A stretch of 53,232 nt of DNA from an uncultured Alphaproteobacteria bacterium (GTDB taxonomy: Bacteria > Pseudomonadota > Alphaproteobacteria > CAAHEQ01 > UBA3637). Location: contig CALXXW010000006.1 in the NCBI GenBank assembly GCA_944392785.1, positions 1 to 53,232 of the forward strand, given 5' to 3'. The position numbers and the translations under genes were made by a program. Shown here one piece after another: positions 32,261 through 40,899 of this stretch (positions within the stretch are counted from its first letter, which is position 1; every line of letters begins with the position of its first letter). The notes beneath the pieces are model-generated. The model had not been told where the DNA came from, searched no databases, and saw only the letters and a program-made list of their open reading frames with translations.

Positions 32261-32986
32261 ATGGTATCAAGTTATACAGTAGATGATTTTTTGGGAGGTC
32301 AAATACGACTTAAACAGGCCCGTCAAGGATTACGGGCCACATCAGATGCCGTTTTGTTGGCGGCTGCCGTTCAAGCTAAATCAGGTGAGCGTATTTTGGA
32401 TGTCGGTGCCGGTAATGGCGTGGTCGGCTTGTGTATAGGGGCTCGTGTCCCGAACATCTGTCTGACTGCTCAGGAAGTTCAGCCGTCTTTGTGTCGCTTG
32501 ATCCGAGAAAATGCCAAGCTGAACAACCAAAAAGTCAGCGTGGTCAATGAGGATATTCAAGCGGCATTCTCTTCTTTGCACGGTGTTCAGTTTGACCATG
32601 TTGTGACAAATCCGCCATTTTATACGGAACAGCATAAACGCTATAACAACGAGCAGAGTCAGGCTTATCATCAGGAAATCCCTTTAAAAGAATGGTTGGT
32701 GTATTGTTTAAAACATGTGCGGCATCGGGGAACCTTGACGCTTGTTCATCGGCCAGAGGCTTTGCCGGAAATGTTAGATGCTCTGATACCCAAGCTGGGA
32801 GGCGTAGAAATTATTCCTTTGTTGCCTAAGCCAGAAAAAAGTGTCAAAAGGATTATTTTACGGGGCGTTGTGGGAAGTCGAAAGCCCTTGGTCTTACGGG
32901 CCGGTATTGTTTTGCATGATCCAAATAATCGCTGGACGGAACAGGCTGAAGATATTATGCGAAAGGGTGTCGGCCTCTTGCTTTGA
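32261..32986 (+). CDS. TrmN6-like tRNA (adenine-N6) methyltransferase
   Basis: 241 residues, Rossmann SAM-binding fold with ILDVGAGNGVVGLCIG and the amino-methylase motif VVTNPPFYTE. The overall pattern (LGGQIRLKQARQGLRATSDAVLLAAA at the start) matches YfiC/TrmN6, which methylates A37 of tRNA-Val with anticodon UAC. That very tRNA gene lies 91 bp away on the other strand. No Shine-Dalgarno is present; TTGACT-17-TACCCT upstream would start the RNA at or next to the ATG. Confidence 0.85.
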   Translation: MVSSYTVDDFLGGQIRLKQARQGLRATSDAVLLAAAVQAKSGERILDVGAGNGVVGLCIGARVPNICLTAQEVQPSLCRLIRENAKLNNQKVSVVNEDIQAAFSSLHGVQFDHVVTNPPFYTEQHKRYNNEQSQAYHQEIPLKEWLVYCLKHVRHRGTLTLVHRPEALPEMLDALIPKLGGVEIIPLLPKPEKSVKRIILRGVVGSRKPLVLRAGIVLHDPNNRWTEQAEDIMRKGVGLLL

Positions 32987-33018
32987 CGGCTTGGGATATG
33001 GCTCCTTGATAAAAAGGC

Positions 33019-33047
33019 TTTACAGCTTTTCGTTTCCGAGGTATAAT
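33019..33047 (+). promoter_or_regulatory. Promoter of the first secreted-protein gene
   Basis: TTTACA (33019-33024), 17-bp spacer, TATAAT (33042-33047), inside a longer match (GGCTTTACAG and GGTATAATAA) shared with the promoter at 34207. Confidence 0.8.
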
Positions 33048-33089
33048 AAGAAGAGAAACAAAAAAACAATCGTTGCAGGAGGTCATTAG

Positions 33090-34181
33090 ATGTCATTAGG
33101 ATGTTTGGGAAAAGCGGCAACAAGAATACTTTTCTTATGTGCCCTCTATCAGCTGGTGAAATTCGGGTGCGCCTCGGACCAGGTGGAGCAGAAGACGCCG
33201 GAGCGGAGAGTGCCCGAAAATGCGGCTGCCGTGGCGCGGGAAACGTATCCTCGTCGGCCTCAAAATTGGCGGGATGAAACTCTGACAAAAACAGAAAGAG
33301 TACGAAATTATCAGGTGACTCAGGAACAGGCGCGAAAAACGCGTATGAACCTGTCGCGTTTGGATACAATGGGAAATAAGCCGGAAAGTTTTACGCCGGA
33401 ACATAATCCCTATATTTCAAGTGGTAAATATGCCGGATCAGACGGAACAAAAATTTTGTTGCATAGCGGAAAGGCGTCTTTTGGTGACTCATTGATGCCC
33501 TTTTTAAAAACAGAGCTGATGCCGGATACCGGAGTGACGTTGAACCAAGGGGTATTCACTATTTATACGCTGGATGCTAAAGAGGTCCGAGAAGCAGAGC
33601 GGACGATTTTTCCGATCGAAACAGTCATTGAAAATACGCAAAGCTTTCAAGTGGCATATAATAATGCTCCGGATGGTACAACGATTGTGATGAGTGAGTT
33701 TAGAAGCTCTTTGCCCGCCGGGAATGCCACTCCTTTGCGTGTGTTGGATTTGGATATTAATGTGGGTTTCGGTGACGAATTCCATCAATATGCCAATGGA
33801 TTTAACATTGTTTTGCCGGCAGATGATCGCTCGGGGGCTCGCGTAGAGCCTATGGTGCTGTCACATGATGGATCTCCGGATAAGTATAAACAGACACATA
33901 TGTTAACGCCGGAAAAAAATACATTGTTGTTGGTGGTCGATGATCGAGGACAAAAGGCCTATACACTTGATTATTTGGTCAGTCAGGGGACGATTTCGGC
34001 TCGGACCGCCGAAAGGTTGGCGGTTATACCGGAAAAAATGAGGTTAAATAATACGGGAAAACAGGGACGATCCATCTTGAAATTTTCGCGTCCCAGCGCT
34101 CAACCGACGGCAACGGTTCGCTGTCCGCTCTATCAGGCCTCTAACATGGTCAGTATTCAAAAAACTGGAGCTTGTCGTTGA
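33090..34181 (+). CDS. Secreted protein, unknown function
   Basis: 363 residues. A basic and then hydrophobic start (AATRILFLCALYQLVKFGC) looks like a signal peptide, followed by a charged low-complexity stretch (about 30-100). A compact domain follows (about 110-300) with YISSGKYAGSDGTKILLHSGKASFG-like alternating strands and FGDEFHQYANGFNIVLPADD, predicted strand-rich. One late cysteine pair (VRCPLYQ, TGACR). AGGAGG lies 7 nt before the ATG. No family recognised. It is followed by two further secreted-protein genes and shares its promoter design with the next. Confidence 0.7.
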   Translation: MSLGCLGKAATRILFLCALYQLVKFGCASDQVEQKTPERRVPENAAAVARETYPRRPQNWRDETLTKTERVRNYQVTQEQARKTRMNLSRLDTMGNKPESFTPEHNPYISSGKYAGSDGTKILLHSGKASFGDSLMPFLKTELMPDTGVTLNQGVFTIYTLDAKEVREAERTIFPIETVIENTQSFQVAYNNAPDGTTIVMSEFRSSLPAGNATPLRVLDLDINVGFGDEFHQYANGFNIVLPADDRSGARVEPMVLSHDGSPDKYKQTHMLTPEKNTLLLVVDDRGQKAYTLDYLVSQGTISARTAERLAVIPEKMRLNNTGKQGRSILKFSRPSAQPTATVRCPLYQASNMVSIQKTGACR

Positions 34182-34206
34182 TAAATAAATAGAATTTCTG
34201 CTTGGC

Positions 34207-34235
34207 TTTACAGAGATTTTTTTCTCGGGTATAAT
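34207..34235 (+). promoter_or_regulatory. Promoter of the secreted-protein pair
   Basis: TTTACA (34207-34212), 17-bp spacer, TATAAT (34230-34235). It shares GGCTTTACAG and GGTATAATAA with the promoter at 33019; the spacer holds the inverted repeat GAGA-T7-CTC. Confidence 0.8.
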
Positions 34236-34273
34236 AAAAAGAAGGGGTTTTAACATATAAAAGGGAGGTAAGT

Positions 34274-35653
34274 ATGGATCGTTATATATCATCAGTGCTG
34301 ATGGCGTTAATTATCGGAGCTATGTCGGCGCCGGTGTTTGCGGATAGCTCTGTCGGAACGACAGGATCAGCAACAGGTGCGGCAGAAAGTGCAACGGAGG
34401 GCGGGGCTGCGGCTCCGACGCTGGGATCTTGGTATACATTGGATTCACTGAAGGCAAATGCCGGTAGCAGTGGTGATGGTAGTGCTAATACACTCGGCTT
34501 GGCAGGTGACAGTTTAAATCTTTCGGCTATCGGCGCAACGTTGGAAGGAAGTTATGCCGGATACGGGGATACTTTAAGAGAAAATCAGTCCGGATCGGAT
34601 ACGGAAAGTGCTTTATTGGCCGCAAAACGTGTGATTAACAACACGCAACGAACGGTCCAGGATGCTCAAACTCGTGTCAATCGAGTGGCAGGTCAGGTTG
34701 ATACGATCTCTCACAACTTGACCGGACAGTCGCTGGGAGTTCGTGACTCGTTAAAAGATGTCAATAAAACGATTAACAAAGGAACGGCAACCTTGGGAAC
34801 AGCTGCAAATGTGACGGGTGCTGCCGCAGGTGTTGTCGGTGGCGTCAGTAAGATTGATACAGAGAATCCCTTTACCATTAGCAATGCTATGACAACGGTG
34901 GATGTGGCTACCGGAGCTTCAAATGCTTATGCCTCCCAAAAACGAGCCGTCGAACAGCGCATTGATACCCTGACGGGGGATAATAAAAGCTCTTCGACAA
35001 CAACGCGTTCGACCGGAACAACGGTCGGTAGCAGTACGGGTTCCGGTGAAGATAACGGGACATCAGGCGGTAATACCGGTAATACAGGTGATGCCTCCGG
35101 TAATGGTGGCTCGGCGGGTAATACGGGATCAACGGGTGGAACATCCGGATCCGGAAATACGGATGGCGCAACCGGAGGAACAACCGGGGGCATTAATGGC
35201 GATAGCTCATCGGGTGGAACGACGGGGGGAAGTTCTTCGGTCGGTGGTCAAACCGGAGGCAGCGGCGGGACTGTCGGATCAACCGGAAACAGCTTTAATG
35301 GTGGATCGGGGAGCGGCGCCAGTAATCCTTTCCGCGCCACAACAACAACTCGTTCAGGCTCCTATAACGCTGGAATGCCGGCTGGGGCAGCGTATGCCAA
35401 AGTTGATCCGGTGACGGGTGTGACACTTTATTATACGCTGGATGGAACGCTGATTGAAGAGGGCGATGTCGGCGAACAAAATCGGATGGGAATGTTGTTG
35501 AGTGAAGAGGCGATCGCTTTGGGATACTATTATGAAATTGATCCTGTCACAGGTGAGGTCCACTACTTTGCTCCGGACGGAACGCCTATCGCGAACCCAG
35601 AGGCGTTGGGTCTTTTGGATAAACCGACGCCCGCTCTTGATGTGAAAGAATAA
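34274..35653 (+). CDS. Secreted Gly/Ser/Thr-rich protein sharing a domain with its neighbour
   Basis: 459 residues. Signal peptide with cleavage after APVFA. Residues about 90-235 form a helical domain (NNTQRTVQDAQTRVNRVAG, GTATLGTAANV, ENPFTISNAMTTVDV) that recurs at the C-terminus of the next protein. Residues about 240-360 are a Gly/Ser/Thr/Asn linker. The end has two repeats of the type DPVTGVTLYYTLDGTLI and DPVTGEVHYFAPDGTPI, like the N-terminal repeats of the next protein. Function unknown; a surface-exposed or matrix protein is a guess. Confidence 0.75.
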   Translation: MDRYISSVLMALIIGAMSAPVFADSSVGTTGSATGAAESATEGGAAAPTLGSWYTLDSLKANAGSSGDGSANTLGLAGDSLNLSAIGATLEGSYAGYGDTLRENQSGSDTESALLAAKRVINNTQRTVQDAQTRVNRVAGQVDTISHNLTGQSLGVRDSLKDVNKTINKGTATLGTAANVTGAAAGVVGGVSKIDTENPFTISNAMTTVDVATGASNAYASQKRAVEQRIDTLTGDNKSSSTTTRSTGTTVGSSTGSGEDNGTSGGNTGNTGDASGNGGSAGNTGSTGGTSGSGNTDGATGGTTGGINGDSSSGGTTGGSSSVGGQTGGSGGTVGSTGNSFNGGSGSGASNPFRATTTTRSGSYNAGMPAGAAYAKVDPVTGVTLYYTLDGTLIEEGDVGEQNRMGMLLSEEAIALGYYYEIDPVTGEVHYFAPDGTPIANPEALGLLDKPTPALDVKE

Positions 35654-35683
35654 GCTTGTGAAGAAGGGGGGGGGAGAAGGGCC

Positions 35684-37072
35684 ATGAAGCGATATCATAT
35701 GTATAAATTGTTTTTGATGGGTGTGTCGGTGATGATTGCTCTTACCGCTTCGGCTCGGACAGAAACCTGGGTCGAGGGTGATGGAACAGAAGGTCGTACC
35801 GTTTATGATGCGGATGGAAATGTTAAATATTATACAGAAACAAAAGACGGTGTGACCGATTATTATGACGCAACAGGAACGCGCTTTCAACGGGAGGAAC
35901 AGAAGGGTGAGATCGTCAAAAATACATATTATGATAAAGATGGTCAAGTGTCGAATGTAATGGAATCCTGGACGGAAGGTGATGGGACAAAAGGTAGCAC
36001 CGTCTATGATGCGGACGGAAATGTGCAATACCACACGGAAACGAATGAAAACGGAGAAACAAGCTATTATCACAAAGATGGCTCGCCGTATGTGACAAAG
36101 GAGCAAAATTCTTCGGCAACAGAAACATGGGAAACGCCTGACACCTTAGAGCCATCTTCCTCGCCCGAGGTTGAAACGGATAGCGCCTCAAATGTAGAGA
36201 TGGGAGGTGAGGTTCCTGAGGATAATGCGCTCGCTCAAACAGGAGAAAATACCAATGGCGCAGAGATTATCGTCACAGAGGATGGGAAGACAATTCAACG
36301 AAATCCGGATGGAACAGTTGTTTTAACAAAAGAGGATGGTTCCCAGGTCATTGACGATGGAGAGGGAAATCTCACGTTTTTGGATTCAAAAGGGAATATC
36401 GTTCACGAAGAGTCGGGAGGAGAACTTGTTGGTGAAAGCCCAGTGATTGACGTGAAAGTTCCTTCTCGTAAACCGCGGGTTTGGGCCCAATACGATACAT
36501 ATAGTGGTCAGTTAAGCAAGGGTGGCGGAAGCTCAACATATACAGCTGGATCGGAAAGTCAGTTGGCAGAAGGATCTGTAAAAGATATTTTTGAAGGCTC
36601 CTATAAAGGTTCTGTTGAGCGTGCGTTTATGGGGGAGCGAGAATTGGCGGCTCTGGAGCGTCAGGAAACAGTAGATCCCTCTATTTTTCAACAGGTGAAT
36701 CAGGCAATGAAAACGGCCAAGGAATATGTCAGCGCTACCCAAAGGACGGTGCAGGATACTCAAACGCGTGTGACAAGTGTTGCGGGTAAAGTTGATACGA
36801 TTTCTAAAAATTTTACAGGAAAATCAACGGGTTTGAAAGATAAAGTTCAAGATGTTAATTCTCAGGTTAACAAAGGAACGGCAACCTTGGGAACAGCATC
36901 TAATATTTTGGGAACAAATAACTTGACAGATATGGAACAGGTTCTGACGGCCGATAATCCCTTCACCGTTGATAATGCGATGGATGCTATAGATGTTGTC
37001 ACACAAACGACGAATAATATGAGAAATAATCAAAATCAAATAGATCGTCGGGTTGATATGTGGAAAAAATAA
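35684..37072 (+). CDS. Secreted repeat protein, paralogue with reversed domain order
   Basis: 462 residues with a signal peptide (FLMGVSVMIALTASA). N-terminal repeats EGDGTEGRTVYDADGNVKYY and EGDGTKGSTVYDADGNVQYH (about 31-50 and 97-116) resemble YD or MORN-variant strand repeats. Acidic repeats (EDGKTIQRNPDGTVVL) follow. The C-terminal 160 residues match residues 90-235 of the preceding protein (TQRTVQDTQTRVTSVAGKVD, NKGTATLGTAS, DNPFTVDNAMDAIDVV). It lies 30 bp after that gene with a GGGGAGAAGG ribosome site, so the two form an operon. Confidence 0.75.
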   Translation: MKRYHMYKLFLMGVSVMIALTASARTETWVEGDGTEGRTVYDADGNVKYYTETKDGVTDYYDATGTRFQREEQKGEIVKNTYYDKDGQVSNVMESWTEGDGTKGSTVYDADGNVQYHTETNENGETSYYHKDGSPYVTKEQNSSATETWETPDTLEPSSSPEVETDSASNVEMGGEVPEDNALAQTGENTNGAEIIVTEDGKTIQRNPDGTVVLTKEDGSQVIDDGEGNLTFLDSKGNIVHEESGGELVGESPVIDVKVPSRKPRVWAQYDTYSGQLSKGGGSSTYTAGSESQLAEGSVKDIFEGSYKGSVERAFMGERELAALERQETVDPSIFQQVNQAMKTAKEYVSATQRTVQDTQTRVTSVAGKVDTISKNFTGKSTGLKDKVQDVNSQVNKGTATLGTASNILGTNNLTDMEQVLTADNPFTVDNAMDAIDVVTQTTNNMRNNQNQIDRRVDMWKK

Positions 37073-37142: not shown

Positions 37143-37529
37143 ATGCGTCATACATTTCAACAACAGCTGGTTTGGGAAACCGTTCAAGCGCTCTGCCATC
37201 CAACAGCAGAGGAGGTCTATGAGAGAGCTATACAAGTATGTCCCTCTTTAAGCCGAGGAACGGTTTACCGTCACTTGGCCGCTTTCGTTGAACAAAGACG
37301 GTTATCAAAAGTTCACATGGAGGATCATTCCGCACGCTTTGATACAACACGAATCCCTCACTATCATGCCGTGTGTGAGTCGTGTGGTGTTTTTTTTGAT
37401 ATCGCTTTACCGTATCAGAATCATCTGAACGATTTTCGCGATCAAACCGGAGCCGTGATAAAAACGCATACTCTGTTTTTTCATGGCATATGTCATAACT
37501 GTCAAAAAAAGAAAGGAAAAAAACAATGA
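37143..37529 (+). CDS. Fur-family regulator, PerR-like
   Basis: 128 residues. A winged helix ([23 protein letters not shown]) precedes the metal-binding dimer domain. Structural zinc ligands are C78, C81, C117 and C120. H73 and H75 in PHYHAVC and D67 correspond to the regulatory iron site in PerR, whose oxidation by peroxide releases DNA. The short N-terminus is usual for anaerobe PerR proteins. It overlaps the rubrerythrin gene by ATGA, which supports a peroxide-sensing role; Fur or Zur cannot be fully excluded. Confidence 0.82.
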
Positions 37530-38068
37530 CAGATTTAAAAGGGACAAAAACCGAGAAGAACCTGATGGCTGCTTTTGCCGGAGAATCCCAGGCACGTAAT
37601 AAGTATACTTACTATGCTTCAAAAGCCAAAAAAGATGGCTATGTGCAAATCGCCAATATCTTTGAAGAAACGGCGAATAATGAAAAAGAACATGCTAAAA
37701 TTTGGTTTAAATTGTTGCATAATGAAGAAATTCCCTCGACCGTGGAAAATCTGGTGGATGCAGCCAATGGAGAAAACTATGAGTGGACGGATATGTATGC
37801 AACGTTTGCCAAAGAAGCTGAAGAAGAAGGTTTTGGCCGTATTGCGGCTTTGTTCCGTATGGTCGGTGAAATCGAAAAAGAACATGAGGCACGCTATCGC
37901 AAATTATTGGCGAATATTGAAGGTGGCCTTGTTTTTTCACGCGATGGAGATATGTTGTGGCAATGTTCTAATTGTGGTCATATCGTTATCGGGAAAAAGG
38001 CTCCGGAGATATGTCCTGTTTGCTCGCATCCCAAAAGCTATTTCCAAATTAAGCCGGAAAACTATTAA
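37526..38068 (+). CDS. rbr: Rubrerythrin
   Basis: 180 residues. A four-helix di-iron domain with [34 protein letters not shown] and [10 protein letters not shown] supplies the Glu/His ligands. A C-terminal rubredoxin domain has WQCSNCGH and [11 protein letters not shown] (four Cys). It reduces hydrogen peroxide with electrons from rubredoxin or an NADH reductase, typical of anaerobes. Start overlaps the regulator stop. Confidence 0.96.
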
Positions 38069-39473: not shown

Positions 39474-40238
39474 ATGTTAAAATCACAAGATAATAAGGGG
39501 ATCTTGACCTACTTATCTCAAAAAATATGCGGGCAAGACCGTCATGATAAGGGACGGCGGGTTTATCGAGCTTTGGAAAAGGCTTTGAACTTAATGCTGC
39601 TGCAAACTAAGTCCATCAAGGTTTTCCCAGATCTACCCCGAATCTTTTGGGGAATGATTGAAATCAATAGTGTCGGTATGATGACGGTTATGGGATATGA
39701 ACAGATAGCATTCGGGCATCGGTATATCTATCAAGCCAATTTATCTACAAAAAACAAGGTGAATGTCGCCCTGGCTTATTTATTGCGCCCCTTGGCGCGT
39801 ATGGAGATGTCTCAGAAAAAAGAGATCTTGAGCTATTTGCGGGAAAATTTTGGATCTGATGTTGGGCAGTTAATTAAGGAATTGAATACAGAGCCAAAGC
39901 GTTCATCTTGTGGTTCTATTCGTGAATGGAAGCAAAAAAGAGAGGCATGGGCGCGACAGTTATCCCCTGATGCGCAGGAGATTCTGTTGTGGGAAGCGGC
40001 AGCATTATCCGAACATATGATAAGGTATGCAGAAGCCTCTAGAGCCTCTATCCCTCAACTGAGGCAGTATCTGGATGACAGTGGTATGGTATCCCTGTCG
40101 TCCGTATTGGCTGATGTTAATCCGATAATGGCACAAAAAATACGCGAGGTTGTGGCCGTCATAGCGCCTCAACAGCTGGCTAAGCAGGCCTATCCTACAA
40201 AACAAAAATATGTCGGGAGAGAGAGAAATGACACATAA
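39474..40238 (+). CDS. Unknown protein A, possible degenerate RelA/SpoT-type HD domain
   Basis: 254 residues, mostly helical, no signal peptide. The stretch VALAYLLRPLARMEMSQKKEILSYLRENFGSDVGQLIKEL (quoted in parts: VALAYLLRPLAR, RENFGSDVGQLIKEL) follows the pattern AALLHDxxEDTxxTxEEIxxxFGxxVAxLVxxV of RelA/SpoT hydrolase domains, but the HD pair is replaced by Arg-Pro. A later helix EILLWEAAALSEHMIRYA sits where KLADRLHNMR would be. No known family is certain. Gene B follows with overlapping start. Confidence 0.6.
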   Translation: MLKSQDNKGILTYLSQKICGQDRHDKGRRVYRALEKALNLMLLQTKSIKVFPDLPRIFWGMIEINSVGMMTVMGYEQIAFGHRYIYQANLSTKNKVNVALAYLLRPLARMEMSQKKEILSYLRENFGSDVGQLIKELNTEPKRSSCGSIREWKQKREAWARQLSPDAQEILLWEAAALSEHMIRYAEASRASIPQLRQYLDDSGMVSLSSVLADVNPIMAQKIREVVAVIAPQQLAKQAYPTKQKYVGRERNDT

Positions 40239-40899
40239 TATCCGAGAAATTCAACGAGCCGAATTATTGTCACGAACATTGCATCAGGGGGTGGATTGTC
40301 CGCTCTTCCCGGGAGTAGACGCCGCCGAATATATCGCCCGTATGGCTTGGGTTATAAACCGCTTTTCAAAACAAGCGGATAAAGAACAATTAATGACAAC
40401 AATTTACTTGTCTCACTCTACGGATAAAGCTTGGTTGGCGCCAGGGGTTCGAGCTCTGAATAAGCGCCTGTTGGAAACATTCTATCATGTTGATGCCTAC
40501 CGTTTGATCAAGCAACTTCATACAGCGCCGGTTTATTCTTCGAAAAAAACGGATAAAGCGGCTTGGAAGTCGTGGATTTGTCAACAAAACGCCTCAATAC
40601 AGGAAATTGTTTTGTCCGAGCAGGTGGTGCGCTTGGCGTTGGCGTATGAAATGGATTTGGTGTCAGAAAAAGTCGGTTTACATGAAACGGCTTTACCGCT
40701 TCAAATAGCCGAAGAATTGGCTCCGTCTGGTTCAGCTTTATGCGAACAGATAAAGCGTTTGTCAACCTCGTGGCAAGGGGTGCACCTTAAACGTCATCGC
40801 GATGCCTTACAAGCTGCCGGTGTGCCGGAAATTGGCCGGAGCGTCTTTAATCGCTGGTTGCATCGACAGGCTACGCGTGAAAATGAAAAAGCTCATTGA
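40228..40899 (+). CDS. Unknown protein B, distant paralogue of protein A
   Basis: 223 residues from the ATG at 40228, which has GGAGAG upstream and overlaps the stop of protein A by 11 bp; the frame also allows 40210. It shares with A the succession DAYRLIKQLHTAP (A: VGQLIKELNTEP), SIQEIVLSEQVVRLAL (A: DAQEILLWEAAALSE) and similar spacing, so it is a divergent tandem copy. No HD motif, no signal peptide, all-helical. Function unknown. Confidence 0.6.
   Translation: MTHNIREIQRAELLSRTLHQGVDCPLFPGVDAAEYIARMAWVINRFSKQADKEQLMTTIYLSHSTDKAWLAPGVRALNKRLLETFYHVDAYRLIKQLHTAPVYSSKKTDKAAWKSWICQQNASIQEIVLSEQVVRLALAYEMDLVSEKVGLHETALPLQIAEELAPSGSALCEQIKRLSTSWQGVHLKRHRDALQAAGVPEIGRSVFNRWLHRQATRENEKAH

What the first reader, a model, noticed from the sequence alone, without database searches (positions are those of the whole stretch)
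33019..37072. Secreted-protein locus: two paralogues with reversed domain order
The 459- and 462-residue proteins share a helical domain of about 150 residues (TQRTVQD, NKGTATLGTA, NPF-T-NAM). In the first it is N-terminal, before a Gly-rich linker and YD-like repeats; in the second it is C-terminal, after similar repeats. A nearly 30-bp exact DNA match inside the domain points to recent duplication or gene conversion. None of the three proteins is recognised. Possibilities are a surface layer, a host-facing adhesin or a matrix system.
Basis: partly seen in the sequence, partly recalled or inferred. Interest (0 to 1): 0.62.

Follow-up and report, generated by a model that had tools for sequence, protein, structure and literature searches.

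The report
Orphan exported protein pair, shared core
A small-genome alphaproteobacterium carries three neighbouring genes for exported proteins with no detectable relatives; two share a helical core attached to different beta-repeat appendages, most likely a lineage-specific surface or envelope system of the ordinary fast-evolving kind.

Summary
A (33090-34181), B (34274-35653) and C (35684-37072) are three same-strand genes whose products begin with export signals. B and C share a helical core (47% identity over 120 aa, E 1e-31), nearer the N-terminus in B and C-terminal in C. 'Reversed domain order' is too strong: the beta-repeat parts of B and C are only marginally alike (P about 0.01). The simpler reading is one common core with different appendages. 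The exact DNA match is 31 nt and no codon-usage simulation in 20,000 reached it, while other synonymous positions are near the level of unrelated codon choice: an old duplication with a short conversion-like tract, not a recent duplication. None of the three matches a family or has a detectable homologue in 43 genomes of its order or about 385 of its class; plasmid, phage, viral-contig and genome scans (not all run for every protein) were also negative. C's N-terminal part is modelled confidently as a single-layer beta-sheet (OspA / CPAP G-box / MORN-like shape). A and B have twin promoter-like sites of a form found nowhere else in the genome. Likeliest function: a lineage-specific surface or matrix system. 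Function is inferred, not shown.

The parts
33016..33054 (+). Promoter-like repeat copy 1 upstream of A: TTTACA-17-TATAAT within a 39-nt repeat
   Evidence: 77% identical to copy 2; the exact TTTACA-N17-TATAAT form occurs only twice in the 1.12 Mb genome, here and before B
33090..34181 (+). Gene A, 363 aa, signal-like N-terminus, orphan
   Evidence: ORF; no family (4, 12, 13), no PDB relative (14), no homologue in family/class genomes, plasmids or viral contigs (9, 28, 70, 73); unrelated to B or C (79)
34204..34242 (+). Promoter-like repeat copy 2 upstream of B
34274..35653 (+). Gene B, 459 aa: signal peptide, core, Gly/Ser/Thr-rich linker, two short C-terminal repeats
34430..34966 (+). Shared helical core in B (residues 53-231; strong part 112-231)
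   Evidence: 47% identity to C core, E 1e-31; extended alignment
34773..34803 (+). 31-nt tract identical to 36867-36897 (conversion-like)
34982..35347 (+). Gly/Ser/Thr-rich linker of B (about residues 237-358)
   Evidence: sequence
35390..35593 (+). B C-terminal pair of YxxxDPVTGxxxYxxxDGT repeats (about residues 373-440)
   Evidence: internal similarity z 8.5
35666..35674 (+). G9 tract between B stop and C start
   Evidence: one of three G9-or-longer tracts in the genome, either strand
35684..37072 (+). Gene C, 462 aa: signal peptide, beta-sheet repeats, second beta block, linker, core
35759..36073 (+). C beta block 1 (residues 26-130), single-layer antiparallel sheet, pLDDT about 90, from an 86-nt internal duplication (35762-35847 and 35963-36048, 78%)
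36239..36418 (+). C beta block 2 (residues 186-245), weak Tcp10_C (G-box) resemblance, below Pfam cut-off
   Evidence: E 0.0021, 18.1 bits against cut-off 36; modelled strands
36482..37057 (+). Shared helical core in C (residues 267-458; strong part 340-458)
   Evidence: helices at low confidence
36867..36897 (+). 31-nt tract identical to 34773-34803

Best explanation
A lineage-specific set of exported envelope or surface proteins. A has its own strong promoter-like site; B and C are probably read together from a copy of it (30 nt between B's stop and C's start). After export through the inner membrane, the shared helical core of B and C probably makes the protein-protein or envelope contact, homo- or hetero-oligomeric. 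The variable parts project outwards: a free-standing single-layer beta-sheet in C, and a flexible Gly/Ser/Thr tether ending in two short Tyr/Asp repeats in B. Together they would build an adhesive or matrix-like surface structure. Shown: gene layout, paralogy, conversion-like tract, twin promoter-like sites, absence of detectable relatives, and a confident beta-sheet model for C residues 26-130. Inferred: export, co-transcription, contact role of the core, surface exposure and adhesive or matrix function.
For: Paralogous core. Signal-like N-termini and no other strongly hydrophobic segment in any of the three proteins. Twin 39-nt promoter-like repeats, found nowhere else in the genome in that exact form. 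Beta block 1 modelled at pLDDT about 90, with matches to OspA, CPAP G-box, TarM and teneurin sheets and to MORN-repeat models. A CPAP construct holding the G-box self-associates into different homo-oligomers, and the G-box itself is reported there to form large concentration-dependent assemblies (PMC5366329). No relative in 43 genomes of the order, though neighbouring genes are found in 34 of 40 and 38 of 40, as expected for fast-evolving surface proteins. A Gly-rich tether is typical of exported modular proteins (general knowledge).
Against: No outer-membrane anchor, sortase, autotransporter or dedicated exporter was seen beside the genes, so a periplasmic location is equally compatible. Core helices are modelled at pLDDT 40-50 and A at 34, so their folds are unknown. 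Fold matches of the beta block are generic: Z of 6 to 9, with large rmsd in many rows. Nothing links A functionally to B and C beyond position and promoter.
Confidence: 0.42

Rival explanations
1. Periplasmic or envelope accessory proteins of a secretion or pilus machine (for example minor-subunit-like helical proteins), rather than surface adhesins or matrix.
For: The genome encodes a type IVb pilus cluster and VirB8/VirB9/VirB10/VirB11-type genes. The core is an all-helical module in proteins with a signal peptide.
Against: A, B and C lie on a different contig from both clusters and match none of their Pfam, NCBIfam or PHROG families. The pilus and type IV genes match known families, whereas A-C have no relative in 42 other genomes of the order.
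Confidence: 0.22
2. Secreted interbacterial antagonism or toxin-type proteins (YD/RHS-like repeats carrying a variable part).
For: Foldseek lists RHS and teneurin beta-repeats among matches to C. C's core gives a weak hit to an RTX haemolysin model, E 5.7e-5 but 21.5 bits against a cut-off of 1000.
Against: No RHS/YD Pfam match, no recognised catalytic domain, no GGxGxD motif in B, and no recognised exporter or immunity gene beside them. The RTX hit is absent for the B core and covers helical sequence only.
Confidence: 0.06
3. True domain-order swap: B and C derive from one two-domain ancestor by circular-permutation-like shuffling, with homologous repeats on opposite sides of the core. (This concerns origin and can hold together with any of the functional readings.)
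For: Core position differs; repeats share Y-x-DG motifs; shuffle test P 0.009.
Against: BLAST E 0.09 or worse between the repeat regions. Each repeat set is better explained by its own internal duplication. C block 2 against B's C-terminus is not significant (P 0.18).
Confidence: 0.15

Closest known systems
Single-layer beta-sheet proteins: Borrelia OspA central sheet, CPAP/TCP10 G-box, MORN repeats
   Same: C residues 26-130 (and less surely 186-245) are modelled as an open antiparallel sheet built from short Tyr/Asp/Gly repeats
   Different: No significant sequence match; the Tcp10_C score is half its cut-off. C carries a helical core joined to the sheet. Resemblance of shape only
RHS/YD-repeat and teneurin proteins
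   Same: Tyr/Asp/Gly-rich beta-repeats; some Foldseek rows
   Different: No RHS Pfam match, no long repeat array, no recognised toxin tip
Lineage-specific (orphan) exported proteins with low-complexity tethers
   Same: Signal-like N-terminus, Gly/Ser/Thr tether, no relatives, paralogous neighbours
   Different: A shared helical core carrying different beta appendages, with a conversion-like DNA tract

Membership tests
Tcp10_C / G-box (PF07202) | score above the Pfam gathering cut-off | tested here: not met
   C 190-215: 18.1 bits against a cut-off of 36
Tcp10_C / G-box (PF07202) | free-standing single-layer antiparallel sheet | tested here: inconclusive
   Best PDB rows are CPAP G-box, Z 8-9 but rmsd about 18 over a two-block span
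RHS/YD repeat proteins | RHS/YD Pfam or NCBIfam match | tested here: not met
   No such family at E up to 1
RTX proteins | GGxGxD nonapeptide repeats | tested here: not met
   No GGxGxD in B; none seen by eye in C (sequence). The helical core hit is 21.5 bits against 1000
WXG100 / type VII targets | score above the curated cut-off | tested here: not met
   B core: 13 bits against a cut-off of 44.85
Exported surface protein | N-terminal signal peptide | tested here: inconclusive
   By inspection and hydropathy; no signal predictor available
Exported surface protein | surface exposure | not testable with these tools
   needs labelling or proteomics

The most novel reading that the evidence does not exclude
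The shared core is a previously undescribed helical assembly domain that builds a surface layer or fibre in one bacterial lineage from two co-expressed paralogues, kept compatible by local gene conversion. Expression of C, of an arylsulfotransferase and of the type IVb pilus secretin would be tuned by slippage in the genome's only three long G tracts.
Probability: 0.1. Interest if true: 0.6.

Novelty: new variant of a known kind. Interest (0 to 1): 0.3.

Why it matters
Uncultured small-genome alphaproteobacteria have few described surface structures (general knowledge). A two-paralogue system with a shared core and different display modules, absent from every other genus of its family tested, would be a clean case of lineage-specific surface innovation. 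As it stands it is one more orphan exported-protein locus whose function must be found at the bench.

Tried and rejected
Three apparent distant hits were checked and rejected. L068 is an open frame beside murA and an MlaD-like gene, E 3.4e-4 in one of 385 genomes. L069 is a methyl-accepting chemotaxis protein coiled coil. L070 is the signal-peptide region of a lipoprotein next to rsmI. A fold for protein A failed (pLDDT 34), so it was not searched. Synteny: the methyltransferase and fur-rubrerythrin neighbours occur in relatives, but their surroundings vary and no A-C relative was seen there. PDB sequence searches gave nothing useful (weak talin rows at E 0.15).

Full report
What is there. Three genes on the + strand lie between a methyltransferase gene (32261-32986) and a fur-type regulator plus rubrerythrin (37143-38068; family assignments): A 33090-34181 (363 aa), B 34274-35653 (459 aa) and C 35684-37072 (462 aa). 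All three have a signal-like N-terminus and no further strongly hydrophobic stretch. The window is contig 6 of a 1.12 Mb genome, 98% complete. Its order, as held, consists of one family with 13 genera.

The shared core. B and C align at 47% identity over 120 aa, E 1e-31. With the low-complexity filter off the alignment extends to B53-231 / C267-458; the added part alone is weak but above chance (P 0.004). In the genome these two are the only copies.

The repeats. C's N-terminus holds an 86-nt direct duplication, 78% identical, 201 nt apart. B's C-terminus holds two short YxxxDPVTG repeats. Each is clearly internal (z 20 and z 8.5). Between the two proteins the similarity is marginal (P 0.009; BLAST E 0.09 in a single-pair comparison, and 0.3). 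So 'reversed domain order' is not established. A common core with separately acquired appendages needs fewer assumptions.

The exact DNA match. It is 31 nt long. Keeping the protein alignment and drawing codons from local usage, the longest exact run has mean 10.5 and 99.9th percentile 22; none of 20,000 draws reached 31. Elsewhere in the core about half of the identical residues share a codon, close to the 41% expected by independent choice (that call took the run as ten codons, while nine are exact). The duplication is therefore old, and the tract looks like short gene conversion; strong local selection on DNA is not excluded.

Regulation. The form TTTACA-N17-TATAAT occurs exactly twice in the whole genome, ending 42 nt before A's start codon and 38 nt before B's. 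A reversed control pattern also occurs twice in the genome, so the number is not unusual; the placement is. The two lie in a 39-nt repeat, 77% identical. B and C are separated by 30 nt, and on the + strand no promoter-like site was listed between B's promoter and C's start, so co-transcription is likely but inferred. A G9 tract (35666-35674) lies between B's stop and C's start. The genome has only three tracts of nine or more G on either strand. The others precede an arylsulfotransferase gene with a signal-like N-terminus (G10) and lie inside the type IVb pilus secretin gene. A Markov estimate expects about six such tracts, so they are not in excess. That all three touch exported or pilus genes suggests slippage-based variation but does not show it.

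Structure. C with a two-sequence alignment gave residues 26-130 as antiparallel strands at pLDDT about 90, residues 186-245 as further strands at about 55-78, and residues 332-461 as helices at 40-50. Foldseek and VIA-align match the beta part to CPAP G-box, OspA, TarM/SdgB and teneurin sheets, and in viral models to MORN-repeat proteins. These share sheets of a similar kind; the matches say little about function. The CPAP G-box is reported to form large assemblies (PMC5366329), a lead for self-association. A's model is unusable.

Relatives. No Pfam, NCBIfam or PHROG family supports an assignment (PHROGs has no curated cut-off, and its best E was 0.003). No PDB sequence relative. No homologue in 43 genomes of the family and order (8, 9, 17), 385 of the class (27, 28), plasmids (A and C, 69, 70) or phages (C only, 19), and none in pattern scans of GTDB genomes (shared core only, 16) and viral contigs (core and A, 18, 73). 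These scans use short peptide patterns and can miss distant relatives, and metagenomes were not searched.

Function. The best reading is a lineage-specific envelope or surface system with an assembling core and variable display parts (confidence 0.42). Rivals are a machine accessory (0.22) and an antagonism protein (0.06). The remainder is unknown function of another kind.

Novelty and score. No family is known, but orphan exported proteins with repeats and tethers are common in bacterial genomes (general knowledge). The paralogue pair with a conversion-like tract and twin promoter-like sites raises it slightly. Interest 0.3.

Noticed in passing
G000:C3, locus L170 5906-12532: A 2208-aa VirB10/TrbI-type protein (TrbI domain near its C-terminus) carrying about nine 5-fold beta-flower repeats, preceded by two VirB8 genes and a CagX/VirB9 gene with a SPOR domain and followed by a VirB11-type ATPase at the contig end. 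An unusually large type IV secretion core protein for a 1.12 Mb genome.
   Followed up: partly
G000:C4, locus L160 1411-8818: Type IVb pilus cluster: PilN-type secretin, PilO, ATPase and T2SSF protein. The secretin gene contains one of the genome's three G9+ tracts in its coding sequence.
   Followed up: partly
G000:C2:23141-23150, locus L165 1501-1510: G10 tract about 60 nt upstream of an arylsulfotransferase gene with a signal-like N-terminus; possible slippage site.
   Followed up: partly
window 37526-38065: Rubrerythrin gene about 80% identical at protein level to copies in gut Bacteroidales and Clostridia records, while family members show two classes (66-85% and about 55%): possible horizontal exchange among gut anaerobes.
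   Followed up: no
window 39474-40899: Two overlapping ORFs of 254 and 229 aa with no Pfam match.
   Followed up: no
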